The position numbers and the translations under genes are program-made. From Candidatus Bathycorpusculum termitum (lineage in GTDB: Archaea; Thermoproteota; Bathyarchaeia; Bathyarchaeales; Bathycorpusculaceae), in the NCBI GenBank assembly GCA_031254875.1, contig JAIRTW010000031.1:1-48224 (forward strand): DNA of 48,224 nucleotides, read 5' to 3'. The notes under the pieces were generated by a model that saw only the letters and a program-made list of their open reading frames with translations, ran no database searches and was not told the DNA's origin. Shown piece by piece: positions 26,741-33,098 of the stretch; position 1 is the first letter of the stretch; the number at the start of each line of letters is the position of its first letter.

Positions 26741-27502
26741 CTATTCTGAGCCAAAGAACGATTCCAGTTTGGACGTCTCCGATTTTTTGAGCACCGATGC
26801 ACAATCTTTTGGGTCTAGCGCTTTAAACTCTAAGCCTAATGTGGACAGCAGACGTTGTACGTCCTTGGCGAGGCTTGGTGCAACGAGGACTGCGCGGACG
26901 GGACGGTTAACTTTGGCTTTGATTGGGGCGATGTATTTTGAGAGTTGCAATGCAGCGTCTTTGGAGGCTGCACGGCGTTTAACTTCGACAATAACGAGCC
27001 TACCGTCTTTGTCTTCGCCATAGATGTCTACAAAACCGGGTTCAATATGTTTCTCCCAGCTGATGGGTTTGAAGCCTTCTTCAAGCAGGCTGGGTTTGAG
27101 AAGTATGGCACGGTGCATGTCGTCTTCGCTTGCATGCAACAGAAACTCGCCAGCATCTAAGAGATTGAGTGCTGAAACCATCAAAACTTCATCGAATGTT
27201 ACTTTTACGCTCTCACGGGGTTTGCTGCGGATGCCTTGTATTTCGAGTTTGTTATCTTTAACCTCGACATGAAAGACACCGCCGGCGGGTTGCCAGTTAA
27301 CAGGCTCATACCCGGTTGGACGATGGATAAGCAGGGAGCCATCTGATTTGACGATAAGGAGGCGTTCGCCTTTTTCTAACGTTGAACTGGCTCTTCCGTC
27401 ATAGTACACATGACAGTTACCCGCGACAAGAAGCGTGCGCCGCTGGGCAAACGCGCGTTCGATCAAGATAACGGCTTCTGCTAATGTGGGTTCTTTTAGC
27501 AT
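26741..27502 (-). CDS. nucS: Endonuclease NucS (EndoMS mismatch nuclease)
   Basis: 253 aa from ATG at 27502; an earlier GTG/ATG extension of 64 residues is not homologous. The N-terminal DNA-binding half is followed by a RecB-like nuclease domain with GFVDIYGEDKDGRLVIVEVKRR: Asp159, Glu173 and Lys175 form the D...E-x-K active site, with Gln186 after. The extreme C-terminus KLESFFGSE (residues 245-253) fits a PCNA-binding PIP box. Family members cut both strands at mismatches or process branched DNA with the sliding clamp. It is divergent from the methyltransferase gene, with 75 nt between. Confidence 0.93.
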   Translation of the reverse strand: MLKEPTLAEAVILIERAFAQRRTLLVAGNCHVYYDGRASSTLEKGERLLIVKSDGSLLIHRPTGYEPVNWQPAGGVFHVEVKDNKLEIQGIRSKPRESVKVTFDEVLMVSALNLLDAGEFLLHASEDDMHRAILLKPSLLEEGFKPISWEKHIEPGFVDIYGEDKDGRLVIVEVKRRAASKDAALQLSKYIAPIKAKVNRPVRAVLVAPSLAKDVQRLLSTLGLEFKALDPKDCASVLKKSETSKLESFFGSE

Positions 27503-27577
27503 TGCAAGTTTATTATTTTGGTGCAAAGTGTTTTTCCGCCAATGTATTTTAGTCAGGGCTTGGGTACATAAGATTTC

Positions 27578-28144
27578 TTGAGTGAAACACAGTTGACCGC
27601 TTGGAAAGCTAAGCGTAACATAATGAAGCGCTACAACATAACAGCCGAAATGTATGATGAACGTTACTTTGAGGAGCAGAACAGGAAATATCAAAAAGCT
27701 CTCGAAAATGTTGACGTGAAAGGTTTGGGGGTTTTGGATGTAGGGTGTGGTTCAGGTTTGTTTTTTTCTTATGCAACAACGCAGACAGCAGTTGTTGTGG
27801 GTATGGATGTCTCACATGGGCTTTTGCTCAAAGCAAAAGAGCGGGCAGAACAGTTCGGGAATGTTTTTTTGGTGCAAGCCGACGCGGACCATCTACCGTT
27901 TAGAGAGAACTTTTTTGGAGCGGTGTTCGCTTTCACGATGCTACAGAATATGCCTAAACCCGCAGATACCATAGCGGAACTCAGAAGGGTTGTGGAAACA
28001 AACGGTAGAGTGATTGTGACGGGGTTAAAGAAGGCGTTTACCCTTAGCAAGTTTATGGATATATTGGAGGATTCTAAGATGCAACTAACGGTTTTTGTTG
28101 ATGAGAATTCCCTAAACTGCTATGTTGCCGTGTTAGCCGCTTAA
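27578..28144 (+). CDS. SAM-dependent methyltransferase
   Basis: 188 aa, class I Rossmann methyltransferase of the UbiE/Methyltransf_11 type. Motif I is VLDVGCGSGLFFSY, motif II is VVGMDVSHGLL, ADADHLPFRENFFGAVFAFTMLQNM is the post-acidic loop and motif IV, and ELRRVVETNGRVIVTG is motif VI. The substrate is unknown. The start given is TTG at 27578; the ATG at 27623 (MKRYNITAEMYDERY) is a good alternative. Its end overlaps the next minus-strand gene by 12 nt, tail to tail. Confidence 0.88.
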   Translation: MSETQLTAWKAKRNIMKRYNITAEMYDERYFEEQNRKYQKALENVDVKGLGVLDVGCGSGLFFSYATTQTAVVVGMDVSHGLLLKAKERAEQFGNVFLVQADADHLPFRENFFGAVFAFTMLQNMPKPADTIAELRRVVETNGRVIVTGLKKAFTLSKFMDILEDSKMQLTVFVDENSLNCYVAVLAA

Positions 28145-29734: not shown

Positions 29735-30358
29735 CTAATCTTTTTCTAAGGGGTTTTCTTCTGCTGGTTCTTCCTGTAGCGGTTCTGCGGCTTCGGTCTT
29801 CTGCTTCTCCGCCGACAACAGCATTTCGATGAGTTTCTTTTGATCCACCTCTGCTTGTGTCCGCCAATCCAAAAACAGCTGGCCCCGCTCATCCTGCATG
29901 ATGTAGCCATGGCGGATATAGCGGTCGAGGTTTAAACCCACTTTCCAGCCGGGTATCTTTTCACCCAACAGTTTTTCAACGTCTTTACGGTTTGTCTGCC
30001 CTTTTTTGCTGATGATGTAGCTGATTGTTACGGCTAAACCTGCGAGATCATCTATGCGCCAACCCATCAACTTATCTTTAGTGGCAACATCGCGTAATAC
30101 CACAAAGAAGCGGGCTTTATCCAGCTCCTCAAGGGTGGGTTTCTCAGAGATTTTCTCTTCCTCGAAAACGGTTTTAACCTCCATATCCATCGGCGCTAGG
30201 TAATCATCCAAGACATCGAGTACTTTTGGGTAATCACTACCCAGCGCCTTATGCAACTCCCAACCCTTCACACCGGGTTTGGCATGGCGCTTGTAGAAGA
30301 GCATCTGGGCAATTTTCTTGACTTTACCTGCATAGAGACCTTTTTTTCTTGCACTCAT
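29735..30358 (-). CDS. Nse3/MAGE-like winged-helix (KITE) subunit of an SMC complex
   Basis: 207 aa. Two winged-helix-like halves are seen: residues about 10-65 (AQMLFYKRHAKPGVKGWELHKAL, then YPKVLDVLDDYLAPMDMEVKTV) and about 95-165 (LAGLAVTISYIISKKGQTNRKDVEKLLG, YIRHGYIMQDERGQLFLDWR). The order and spacing resemble Nse3/MAGE proteins: a region before a middle strand (FFVVLRD), a GL-led helix, a long wing and a FLxWR-like end. The last 35 residues are acidic and disordered. Such KITE dimers bind the kleisin and DNA in SMC complexes. Its ATG overlaps the stop of the kleisin gene (ATGA). The context makes the role likely; the exact KITE subtype (Nse1, Nse3 or ScpB) is inference. Confidence 0.62.
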   Translation of the reverse strand: MSARKKGLYAGKVKKIAQMLFYKRHAKPGVKGWELHKALGSDYPKVLDVLDDYLAPMDMEVKTVFEEEKISEKPTLEELDKARFFVVLRDVATKDKLMGWRIDDLAGLAVTISYIISKKGQTNRKDVEKLLGEKIPGWKVGLNLDRYIRHGYIMQDERGQLFLDWRTQAEVDQKKLIEMLLSAEKQKTEAAEPLQEEPAEENPLEKD

Positions 30359-31182
30359 AGCGGTCTACCTTCTTTCCATTTCTGCCAATCCTCACAGGAC
30401 ACTGCAATTGGGACAGAGGCTGATTGAACCGTCAAAGCCGCCTCATGGGGCACCTCGTAGGGAATTATAAACACCGTTTCCTCTAGCCGATCAATTTCCA
30501 AGGTGGCATAACCATAAGTAACCAGAAAGCTTGTAAGAAACGCCCGTTGCACAGTCTCTGGGTAGGTGTCGGTTCCGATGAAATCCCAGTAATCAATTTT
30601 TCCGTCTGTGCCTTTTTCTTTGACTCTGAGTTTGAGTTCCTGCCAGTAGCATTCGAGTTCTTCGCCAAATTCCTTGTCGCTTAGCACCTGTTGCTTAACC
30701 ATCTCGGCACGGCTCACCGAGCCGATTTCAACCGCATCAACATCTATGTCCCGCCAGCGCGTCCCAAGAGGCTCCAATGCATCCCAATAAAGCAACCCCT
30801 GTGCAAGATTATGGAGATTTAGTTGCTCGAATTCAACCAACGGCGTCCAAACAGAGGTAAAAACTCTAATCATGCCCTCTTTTGAAGTCTGGCGGATTTT
30901 CTCCTCCAAAAGAAACGGATCTGTATAGAGGGAAGTGGAACGTTGTTTAACCCATTCGCTTTGAATTTTGATAACGGAAGCAAGGTGATGAAGCGCTTCA
31001 GCGTCAAGTTCAAGCTCATTGGGATGTTTCCAATGAGGAAAATATTGCTTTACTACAACAATAATGTCGTCCACATTTAGGGTAAAGGGATCTACTTGTT
31101 TGTTTTCGATGGCAACGCACATTTCGATAATACGCTCAAGGTTCTCTCGACCCAGCTTCTTGTCGTGTTTACCAGCGATCAC
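30355..31182 (-). CDS. Kleisin (ScpA/Nse4-like) subunit of an SMC complex
   Basis: 275 aa. The N-terminal part follows ScpA: a helix LERIIEMCVAIENKQVDPFTLN, DDIIVVVKQYFP, then LDAEALHHLASVIKIQSEW (residues 59-77), the position of the ScpA helix that binds the SMC neck. The C-terminal region has a kleisin-type winged helix (VQRAFLTSFLVTYGYATLEIDRLEETVFIIP, residues 211-241) that would bind the SMC head from below. The middle is Trp-rich and could bind the KITE protein. The gene overlaps the SMC gene upstream and the KITE gene downstream by 4 nt each. The family call is by pattern only. Confidence 0.65.
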   Translation of the reverse strand: MIAGKHDKKLGRENLERIIEMCVAIENKQVDPFTLNVDDIIVVVKQYFPHWKHPNELELDAEALHHLASVIKIQSEWVKQRSTSLYTDPFLLEEKIRQTSKEGMIRVFTSVWTPLVEFEQLNLHNLAQGLLYWDALEPLGTRWRDIDVDAVEIGSVSRAEMVKQQVLSDKEFGEELECYWQELKLRVKEKGTDGKIDYWDFIGTDTYPETVQRAFLTSFLVTYGYATLEIDRLEETVFIIPYEVPHEAALTVQSASVPIAVSCEDWQKWKEGRPL

Positions 31183-33098
31183 TTGACAACCTCCCGCACA
31201 AGAGATTTTCCTTCAAGACTCTGGACAGTAATGACATTGGCGTCCTGCTGGACAAAAGTAATTTGACTAGGCGTAATGACAACGTACTGGGAGGTGGCAT
31301 CTTTTATCATGGCAACCAACACCTTGGCTATCATTTCACGGTTTTTTGGATCCATGTGGATATCATATTCGTCTACAGCACGAAAAGGCGAGCGAACATG
31401 TTGCTGTAATGCCAACAAAAACCCCATAGTAGCAGTTGTGCGTTCGCCGCCGCTTTGCGTGTAAGCATCGAGTGCAACAGGCCGGCTACCTTTGAAACCC
31501 ACATAGATGTCTAAACCGGCAACTGTTATGTCCTGAACGTTGGACAGTTGAACTTCACCGGTCGCCAAAGTTTGGCTCATTATGCGCTGGTACTCTAAAT
31601 TGACGCGGTCGAGTAGTTGCTCCATAACAGAGCGCCAAGCAGCCATGCGAATCTTGACTTCTTCAAGCGTTTTCTCACGGTTTTCAGCAACAAGCCGCAC
31701 CTTCTCTTTAAGTTCAAAGTAGAGTTTTGAGTAGGATTCGTATTGCCGCTCAATCTCCTCTGAGACCCCTGAGAGCGCAACTAGATGGCCGTCGGTTAAT
31801 CCCATTTCCGCTTGGATTTCGTTTGCAGATTTTACTACGGCAATGCGTTCGCCTGTTGTCTGCGCTTTGGCGAGGGCGCTATTGAGGTTTTCTTGAGCTT
31901 CTTTGAGGGATTTCTCGGTGGTTTCCTGTTCTTTAGCGGCACGTTCTCGTTTGAAATCCAAAAGGGCAAGGGCGATACGTTTGTCAAACGCCCCGACGGT
32001 GATTTTGTTAGTGGACTCTTCGAGGCGTTGCATTACGGTTTTGTTGGCGGCGATTTGTTTGGTTGCTTTCTCTATCTGTTGCTGGGATATCTCAAGCATT
32101 TCTCTGAGGCTCTCAGGACGCAGGAGCTTGAATTGGCTAATGTCTGTGATTGATTCGAGGTGTTCTGCTTCAAAGAGTAGCTGTTCCGCAAGGGAAAGCT
32201 GGGATTGGTTTTGGGCGGCTTTACGTTCCAAACCAAGGCGCTCCTCAAACATGAGTTTGAGTTCATCTTTAAGCGTCTGTTGCTCGACACGCTGCCCATC
32301 CATTTCGCCGATGAGCGCGTGGCGTTCATCTTCAATTTTGCCCAGCGTCTGCTGAGTACGGTTAAAATTAGCCTGTAACCCCTTCACAATGCCTTCTCGA
32401 CGTTCAACTTCAGCCCAAACCAGTTCGCGATCCAAAAATCGCCTTTTGAGCTGAAGTTGCTTTTTTTCTTGGAATTTCTCGTATTGTTCACGCCAGTAGT
32501 TGAGGGTCTGTTCAGCCTGCTCGAGTAGTTTGCCCACGGATTCTTCCTGTGTTAGGATACGAGTAAGCTTGGTTTTGGCCGCTACCACGTTTTCACGAAA
32601 AGACTCCAAGCCCACGGCTTCTTCAACCATACGGAGTTTGTCTATGTTACTTAGCACGCTAAACTGTTCCACCATGTTCTGGTGCATGATGATGAGCATG
32701 TTGTCAGGGTCCACTCCGAATTTGCCCAAAAACCGTTCCACATCTTGTTTTGATGCAACATGGTTTTCGAGTTCAAACCAGTATTTGCCGTCCCGGCGCA
32801 GAATCCGCGTTAGAAAAAGCTGATCTTTGTTGTATTTGGGTTCGGGGCGTCTGCTACCTTGTTTTGTGTTATCTAAGATAAGGGTGACACGGGCTTGGTC
32901 TTGTCCCCAGCGAATGAGATCGCTGAGTTTACGGCTACGCTCTGTGCTGGTCTGCCCCAATCCTACGCTGATGGCAAGCAAAAGAGAGGATTTTCCTGCG
33001 CCGTTGGGACCACCAATTACGTTAACACCCTGCTTGAAGGGCACTCGGGCGTATTCGTAACTCATAAAATTTTCAACGATAAGTTCTCGAATTAACAC
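31179..33098 (-). CDS. Short SMC5/6-like ATPase
   Basis: 639 aa from GTG at 33098, chosen because GAGGC lies 8 nt upstream and the family N-terminus (IRELIVENFMSYEYARV) begins there; a GTG at 33161 is possible. Walker A is GGPNGAGKSS (about 29-38), followed by AISVGLGQTS, an SMC5/6-style stretch. The Q-loop is MLIIMHQNMVEQF. The C-terminal head has signature QSGGERTTATMGFLLALQ and Walker B FRAVDEYDIHMDPKNRE, both closer to Smc5/Smc6 than to Smc1-4 or Rad50. The coiled-coil arms between (about 190-500) are very short, and I see neither an SMC hinge domain nor a Rad50 CxxC hook. A canonical SMC has about 1100-1200 aa. Confidence 0.85.
   Translation of the reverse strand: MLIRELIVENFMSYEYARVPFKQGVNVIGGPNGAGKSSLLLAISVGLGQTSTERSRKLSDLIRWGQDQARVTLILDNTKQGSRRPEPKYNKDQLFLTRILRRDGKYWFELENHVASKQDVERFLGKFGVDPDNMLIIMHQNMVEQFSVLSNIDKLRMVEEAVGLESFRENVVAAKTKLTRILTQEESVGKLLEQAEQTLNYWREQYEKFQEKKQLQLKRRFLDRELVWAEVERREGIVKGLQANFNRTQQTLGKIEDERHALIGEMDGQRVEQQTLKDELKLMFEERLGLERKAAQNQSQLSLAEQLLFEAEHLESITDISQFKLLRPESLREMLEISQQQIEKATKQIAANKTVMQRLEESTNKITVGAFDKRIALALLDFKRERAAKEQETTEKSLKEAQENLNSALAKAQTTGERIAVVKSANEIQAEMGLTDGHLVALSGVSEEIERQYESYSKLYFELKEKVRLVAENREKTLEEVKIRMAAWRSVMEQLLDRVNLEYQRIMSQTLATGEVQLSNVQDITVAGLDIYVGFKGSRPVALDAYTQSGGERTTATMGFLLALQQHVRSPFRAVDEYDIHMDPKNREMIAKVLVAMIKDATSQYVVITPSQITFVQQDANVITVQSLEGKSLVREVVK

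What the first reader, a model, noticed from the sequence alone, without database searches (positions are those of the whole stretch)
29735..33098. Compact three-gene SMC5/6-type complex: SMC ATPase, kleisin and MAGE-like KITE protein
Seen: three genes in one operon joined by two ATGA overlaps. The ATPase has SMC5/6-style motifs (AISVGLG after Walker A, QSGGERTTATMGFLLALQ, SPFRAVDEYDIHMDPKNRE). The second protein fits a kleisin at both ends (SMC-neck helix, C-terminal winged helix). The third fits the tandem winged helices of Nse3/MAGE. Known: SMC complexes are built from exactly these three parts, and SMC5/6-related ATPases have been reported in some archaea, as I recall. Inference: this operon is a complete minimal SMC5/6-like machine, possibly close to the ancestor of the eukaryotic one.
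Basis: partly seen in the sequence, partly recalled or inferred. Interest (0 to 1): 0.85.

Follow-up and report, generated by a model that had tools for sequence, protein, structure and literature searches.

The report
Archaeal hinge-less Smc5/6-type complex operon
Three overlapping genes in an uncultured archaeon appear to encode a small version of Smc5/6, a DNA-handling machine known from eukaryotes, but without the hinge that normally joins its two arms, so it may show what such machines can do as a bare DNA clamp.

Summary
The finding holds up. At 29735-33098 (minus strand) a Bathyarchaeia genome carries three overlapping genes: an SMC ATPase (639 aa), a kleisin (275 aa) and a KITE protein (207 aa). 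The ATPase family's ten best PDB matches are all Smc5 or Smc6, and its heads form one clade with Smc5 and Smc6 apart from canonical SMC. The kleisin matches Pfam's Nse4_C (25 of 30 close rows, 18 of 31 wider rows, best E 5.8e-9), and its model's two best Foldseek hits are Nse4. The KITE model is closest to Nse1/Nse3/MAGE. The genes lie together in 78 of 80 close loci and in order in 27 of 31 distant ones. The same genome has a separate canonical SMC operon. An archaeal "SMC5/6-related" ATPase was already in print; its kleisin and KITE partners and the missing hinge were not found in my searches. Most likely it is an ATP-gated DNA clamp for recombination/repair or chromosome upkeep (function inferred). 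Whether it is ancestral to eukaryotic Smc5/6 is open: no Asgard genome could be reached.

The parts
31179..33098 (-). SMC5/6-type ATPase, 639 aa, GTG start; N- and C-terminal head halves joined by a short, mostly coiled-coil-like segment without recognisable hinge or zinc hook
   Evidence: Pfam SMC_N 1.8e-33; best PDB relatives Smc5/Smc6; no SMC_hinge match; no CxxC in 58 family proteins
30355..31182 (-). Nse4-type kleisin, 275 aa, GTG start; predicted N-terminal helices 3-26, 37-50, 54-87 and C-terminal winged helix 170-241
   Evidence: Pfam Nse4_C E 4e-4 at residues 198-269, below the curated cut-off; AF2 model; Foldseek top two hits are Nse4 chains of Smc5/6 complexes
29735..30358 (-). KITE protein (tandem winged helices), 207 aa, ATG start, no RING
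31179..31182 (-). GTGA stop-start overlap, SMC to kleisin
   Evidence: read
30355..30358 (-). ATGA stop-start overlap, kleisin to KITE
   Evidence: read

Best explanation
The operon encodes an archaeal SMC-kleisin-KITE complex that shares ancestry with the core of eukaryotic Smc5/6. One SMC gene stands where eukaryotes have Smc5 and Smc6, one Nse4-type kleisin, and one KITE where eukaryotes have Nse1 and Nse3. Shown by sequence or predicted fold: the identity of each subunit, the conserved gene order, and the lack of a recognisable hinge or zinc hook. Inferred: two copies of the ATPase are bridged by one kleisin (its N-terminal helices on one neck, its C-terminal winged helix on the cap of the other head); a KITE dimer sits on the middle of the kleisin; ATP binding engages the heads and clamps DNA between heads, kleisin and KITEs; hydrolysis releases it. 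Without a hinge there is no closed large ring, so the machine should work mainly through its clamp. Likely role (weakest step): recombination/repair or chromosome upkeep, beside the cell's own canonical SMC complex.
For: ATPase profile: the 10 best PDB sequences are all Smc5/Smc6 (1e-52 to 6e-38), ahead of prokaryotic SMC 2.5e-34 and Rad50 about 1e-8; the genome's own canonical SMC shows the reverse, 44 sequences at E<=1e-20, none labelled Smc5 or Smc6. Head tree of 68 rows: family+Smc5+Smc6 99/93 against canonical SMC 97/99, Rad50/SbcC as outgroup. Kleisin: Nse4_C at E<=1 in 25 of 30 close rows, best 5.2e-5 and in 18 of 31 wider rows, best 5.8e-9 (each set includes the window); of 4 distant kleisins scanned singly one, L131, passes the curated cut-off, 30.8 v 26 bits; profile v PDB: Nse4 2.3e-5, EID3 5.2e-5; Foldseek top hits Nse4. 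KITE: Pfam MAGE in 8 and SMC_Nse1 in 6 of 31 wider rows at E<=1; fold hits. Operon: 78 of 80 and 27 of 31 loci; identity-matrix correlations 0.71-0.91, 0 of 2000 permutations as high; SMC and kleisin present or absent together in 35 of 36 genomes tested for both (counted by hand). Hinge. Role: a Lhr-type helicase gene lies tail to tail within 60 bp of the KITE gene in 11 of 111 loci.
Against: The window's own kleisin reaches Nse4_C only below the curated cut-off (21 v 26 bits), and Nse4_C also rings at E<=1, none over the cut-off, in 2 of 14 control genomes. The kleisin model is of low confidence (pTM 0.36), its whole-chain match to Nse4 is loose (TM 0.24), and in VIA unrelated winged helices follow the kleisins closely (9.6 down to 8.0 in rows 1-8). 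MAGE and Nse1 Pfam matches are weak; among 6 KITEs scanned singly none passed a cut-off, and KITE profiles found no KITE in PDB by sequence. Smc5 and Smc6 are very long branches and no Smc1-4 was in the tree. No complex was modelled and no function tested. Lhr is not beside the window's operon and was found in 19 of 111 loci at any distance. Five same-genus genomes at 94-97% completeness lack both SMC and kleisin, so it is dispensable there.
Confidence: 0.78

Rival explanations
1. It is a shortened, diverged Smc-ScpAB (bacterial-type condensin) and not specially related to Smc5/6.
For: Kleisin and KITE folds also match ScpA and ScpB; the kleisin profile aligns to the own ScpA-like C-terminus (E 6.9e-5, prob 63); 8 of 41 phylum genomes have the kleisin but no canonical SMC detected at 1e-30, so it might stand in for condensin there.
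Against: The same genome has a separate canonical SMC gene followed by ScpA- and ScpB-like genes on C116; ATPase profile and tree put the family with Smc5/6; Nse4_C, not SMC_ScpA, is the Pfam family that recurs in the kleisin; KITE v own ScpB-like protein hhalign E 0.44.
Confidence: 0.07
2. It is an SMC-based defence system against plasmids or viruses, like Wadjet or Lamassu, or like Smc5/6 silencing of episomes.
Against: None of these neighbours is conserved with the trio (8 and 4 of 111 loci), and 7 window neighbours plus 2 recurrent upstream genes gave no JetD or Lamassu effector in PADLOC at E<=0.1. The kleisin has no PADLOC match at E<=1 and the KITE only Cas2 at 0.042. The most frequent window-side neighbours look like RNA polymerase, ribosomal-type and NusA-like genes (named by recall). 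No true family member on viral contigs. Subunits co-vary along the phylum.
Confidence: 0.12
3. It is a Rad50/RecN/coalescin-type SMC-like ATPase with unrelated small partners.
For: Size and missing hinge resemble ClsN/ASRP and RecN; NCBIfam ASRP rings at 45 bits (cut-off 300).
Against: No zinc hook in 58 proteins; Rad50 and ASRP models score below SMC ones; the partners have kleisin and KITE folds.
Confidence: 0.03

Closest known systems
Eukaryotic Smc5/6 core (Smc5, Smc6, Nse4, Nse1, Nse3)
   Same: Same three protein classes; heads closest to Smc5/6; Nse4_C kleisin; KITE fold closest to Nse1/Nse3; in the aligned heads QSGGER as in Smc5, and a TP after Walker B (ITP here and in both yeast proteins, LTP in the other Smc6) where the two canonical SMCs shown have ITL or ITH
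   Different: One SMC and one KITE gene instead of two each; no recognisable hinge; 202-326 residues between the heads; no RING on the KITE (at most 3 Cys in any of 60 rows); Nse2 and Nse5/6 were not looked for
Archaeal 'SMC5/6-related' SMC (Yoshinaga and Inagaki 2021, cited in PMC9389158)
   Same: Same phylogenetic position: a clade with SMC5 and SMC6 apart from canonical SMC (PMC9389158, passages read); very probably the same ATPase family
   Different: I could not compare sequences (2021 paper not held, supplements out of reach). The word kleisin does not occur in PMC9389158, so partners are not described there
Smc-ScpAB (prokaryotic condensin)
   Same: SMC-kleisin-KITE composition in one operon; one SMC and one KITE gene
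   Different: Has a hinge and 805-817 residues in the same stretch; a separate copy exists in the same genome
Wadjet JetABC / MukBEF
   Same: KITE-based complexes; JetB among the best fold matches of the KITE
   Different: No JetD found among window neighbours; ATPase not close to JetC (26 bits)
ASRP/coalescin ClsN
   Same: Short archaeal SMC-like ATPases
   Different: Most ASRPs have a zinc hook (PMC9389158); this family has none and has kleisin and KITE partners

Membership tests
Smc5/6 complex | SMC heads group with Smc5/Smc6 rather than Smc1-4/canonical SMC | tested here: met
   opposite rankings; Smc1-4 included as PDB entries; tree, 99/93; Smc1-4 not included
Smc5/6 complex | kleisin of Nse4 type (Nse4_C domain) | tested here: met
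   below the curated cut-off in the window's own protein, above it in L131
Smc5/6 complex | KITE subunits of Nse1/Nse3 type | tested here: met
   Fold matches; weak Pfam MAGE in 8 of 31 and SMC_Nse1 in 6 of 31 rows, none of 6 scanned singly over its cut-off
Smc5/6 complex | hinge domain dimerising two SMC arms | tested here: not met
   No SMC_hinge hit in the window protein; not among the families met by 4 or more of 29 rows; too few residues between heads. No structure of the SMC was predicted
Smc5/6 complex | heterodimer of two different SMC proteins and two different KITEs | tested here: not met
   One of each in the operon; one family SMC and one kleisin in the genome; other KITE copies were not searched genome-wide
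Smc5/6 complex | Nse1 RING, Nse2 SUMO ligase, Nse5/6 | tested here: inconclusive
   No RING on the KITE (at most 3 Cys in any of 60 rows); Nse2, Nse5, Nse6 not searched
SMC-kleisin-KITE complexes in general | kleisin with N-terminal neck-binding helices and C-terminal winged helix | tested here: met
   AF2 model, fold hits; the N-terminal half is barely tested by the VIA search
SMC-kleisin-KITE complexes in general | subunits assemble into one complex | not testable with these tools
   Only co-occurrence and co-variation
Rad50/ASRP | zinc hook (CxxC) at the coil tip | tested here: not met
   0 of 58 proteins
Wadjet | JetD nuclease gene beside the SMC trio | tested here: inconclusive
   Not found in PADLOC among 7 window neighbours and 2 recurrent upstream genes, and not recognised by eye in the 30 commonest neighbour clusters of 111 loci; other neighbours were not scanned

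The most novel reading that the evidence does not exclude
This is the prokaryotic counterpart from which the eukaryotic Smc5/6 core grew by duplicating the ATPase (Smc5, Smc6) and the KITE (Nse1, Nse3) around a kept Nse4 kleisin, and it works without any hinge: an SMC machine reduced to its DNA clamp.
Probability: 0.35. Interest if true: 0.9.

Novelty: new variant of a known kind. Interest (0 to 1): 0.78.

Why it matters
A 2023 review (PMC10512200, passages read) lists the KITE-based SMC complexes as Smc5/6 in eukaryotes and Smc-ScpAB and MukBEF/MksBEF/Wadjet in prokaryotes, and describes the hinge as the domain that holds the two SMC proteins together. A prokaryotic Smc5/6-type complex with its own Nse4-like kleisin would give the missing outgroup for how Smc5/6 arose. 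A natural version without hinge would separate the two DNA compartments (clamp and ring) that the review describes. A three-gene complex, also present in genomes where no canonical SMC was detected, is small enough to reconstitute.

Tried and rejected
Canonical condensin, Rad50/ASRP-type and defence-system readings were weighed and set aside (see rivals).

Viral origin: a scan of viral contigs with the ATPase profile gave 17 loci that match only fragments of the head (at most 138 residues); no family member.

Nse1/Nse3 by sequence alone: KITE profiles found no KITE in PDB; only the predicted fold and weak Pfam matches show it.

Ancestry: a tree with the family held apart from canonical SMC plus Smc5/6 is not rejected (AU p 0.261), so the nesting of Smc6 beside L138 (97/93, long branches) is not taken as real. 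No other phylum, and so no Asgard genome, turned up in the genome searches made; the one genome-contig scan returned its 80 best of 271 loci, mostly titled Bathyarchaeota.

Second copies: some genomes have two sets, but in the single-contig case (G458) one set has only a 136-aa SMC ORF as best match, and the other cases may be mixed bins, so no heterodimer is claimed.

Weak kleisin matches near 1e-4 in genomes without the operon (for example G001 and G043) are taken to be ScpA-like; this was not checked.

Literature: ten searches showed no archaeal Nse4-type kleisin or Smc5/6-type operon in their listings. Read as passages only: PMC9389158, PMC7055376, PMC10586767, PMC9764264, PMC10003631, PMC8327961, PMC10512200. 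The 2021 paper on archaeal SMC5/6-related proteins is not held, and papers outside that open-licence library and preprint servers were not searched, so novelty is provisional.

Rows dropped: L165 from the tree (no Walker A on the fragment) and canonical SMC loci without an intact ORF of 900 aa or more, leaving 10; L171 from alignments A4 and A5; L065 and L070 from the junction listing.

Corrected on checking: the zinc-hook count (first taken as 48, of which one line printed no count; recounted as 0 of 58), the statement on neighbouring nucleases, and the make-up of the wider row sets, which include the window.
Full report
What is there. The window lies in a 2.3-Mb genome (contig C95 of G000). 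Its nearest relatives in the genome scan, 88% identical in the ATPase, are a MAG titled Nitrososphaerota and 'Candidatus Bathycorpusculum acetigenerans'; most of the other 78 loci are titled Bathyarchaeota. On the minus strand three genes overlap: ATPase 33098-31179, kleisin 31182-30355, KITE 30358-29735, with joints GTGA and ATGA.

ATPase. It has both SMC head halves (SMC_N 1.8e-33). As a single query its best PDB matches are Smc5 (2e-30) and Smc6; as a 30-row profile the first ten sequences are all Smc5/Smc6 (1e-52 to 6e-38), then prokaryotic SMC at 2.5e-34. The canonical SMC of the same genome behaves the opposite way: 44 PDB sequences at E<=1e-20, none labelled Smc5 or Smc6. In a tree of head sequences (51 family, 12 canonical, 3 Smc5/6, 2 Rad50-type rows) family+Smc5+Smc6 are separated from canonical SMC at 99/93 and 97/99. 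Without the outgroup canonical SMC stays one side at 100/100. The Smc5/6 branches are long and Smc1-4 are not in the tree, so only the broad split is used. The published split of archaeal SMCs into canonical and SMC5/6-related agrees (PMC9389158, passages).

No hinge. Pfam's hinge model rings over its cut-off only in the canonical SMC of the same genome (2.9e-20), not in the window's ATPase, nor is it in the window protein's own Pfam list. Between fixed points just inside the two heads lie 202-326 residues in 58 family proteins against 805-817 in 10 canonical ones. In the shortest members the two profile matches nearly touch (L123: residues 5-309 and 312-566 of 572). No CxxC zinc hook occurs in the 58 proteins. 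The SMC itself was not modelled, so a small, unknown tip domain in the longer members is not excluded.

Conservation and spread. All three genes lie together on one strand in 78 of 80 loci of the genome scan and in order in 27 of 31 distant loci of the phylum, which were picked for their kleisin match; exceptions are L121, L125, L129 and L171. Their identity matrices correlate at 0.71-0.91 with 0 of 2000 permutations as high (28 loci in each of two sets). The kleisin is found in 157 of 398 genomes of the phylum (78 of 163 genera). Within the genus it is patchy: G001, G010, G020, G025 and G026, at 94-97% completeness, lack both SMC and kleisin. SMC and kleisin go together in 35 of 36 genomes tested for both; G043 has the SMC match alone (hand count). 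Among 41 phylum genomes, 16 have kleisin and canonical SMC, 8 the kleisin alone, 7 canonical SMC alone and 10 neither (hand count; canonical SMC at E<=1e-30), so the system is not an accessory of condensin. The window's genome also has a canonical SMC gene followed by ScpA- and ScpB-like genes and two Rad50-type operons (partly named by recall).

How it probably works. From the known anatomy of KITE-based SMC complexes (review PMC10512200, passages) the kleisin bridges the neck of one SMC to the cap of the other, and DNA is held in a clamp of heads, kleisin and KITEs when ATP engages the heads. The parts of that clamp are here; the hinge that closes the larger ring is not. The expected machine is therefore a short-armed ATP-gated clamp. 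Steps shown: parts and order. Steps inferred: stoichiometry, clamp, lack of ring, function. The recurrent tail-to-tail Lhr-type helicase (within 60 bp of the KITE end in 11 of 111 loci; two of them identified by Pfam) favours recombination or repair, weakly. Against a defence role: no JetD or Lamassu effector among the nine neighbours scanned. But nuclease-family genes do occur nearby in a few loci (NucS type in 8, Mre11-like in 4), and a neighbouring methyltransferase rings a defence model, mad2, at 50 bits, so defence is not excluded.

Ancestry. One SMC and one KITE where eukaryotes have two of each, around one kleisin, is what a pre-duplication state would look like. But the family lacks the hinge that Smc5/6 has, so these archaea are more simply a sister branch that lost it, and no Asgard genome could be examined. 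The ancestral reading stays open at about one in three.

Verdict. The ATPase type was known; the partner subunits, operon and missing hinge were not found in ten literature searches of one open-licence library.

Noticed in passing
40 of 111 related loci, e.g. L046:4037-4732 (-), L135:8724-9419 (+): A gene family of about 230 aa, usually transcribed divergently upstream of the SMC gene, across the phylum; the two members scanned had no Pfam, NCBIfam or PADLOC match above chance; not found in the window's own genome.
   Followed up: partly
19 of 111 related loci, e.g. L133:2070-4928 (+), L122:2460-5348 (+): Lhr-type helicase (WH_Lhr, DEAD_assoc in the two scanned) convergent to the KITE gene, within 60 bp of its end in 11 loci.
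   Followed up: partly
G000:C116, L160:931-5964 (+): Canonical smc followed by overlapping scpA- and scpB-like ORFs in the same archaeon (ScpB named by eye, ScpA only at E 0.005 with SMC_ScpA), of interest because archaeal Smc complexes are reported to lack the KITE subunit in general (PMC7055376, passages).
   Followed up: no
L200/L201 (G458, one contig), L202/L203 (G484), L204/L205 (G456), L206/L207 (G491): Some genomes carry two diverged sets of these genes (kleisins 56-75% identical between sets); in the single-contig case one set has only a 136-aa SMC ORF as best match; mixed bins are possible for the others.
   Followed up: partly
window 26741-27694 (-): A NucS/EndoMS-type endonuclease gene (NucS_N, NucS_C) about 2 kb from the operon; its cluster covers 8 sources in the neighbourhood comparison.
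   Followed up: no
window 27578-28144 (+): A class-I methyltransferase gene (Methyltransf_11) that also rings PADLOC mad2 at 50 bits.
   Followed up: no
L065 (4069-9066): One relative has the SMC gene with no kleisin or KITE in the next 5 kb; a small ORF and ABC-transporter-type genes follow instead (names by recall).
   Followed up: no
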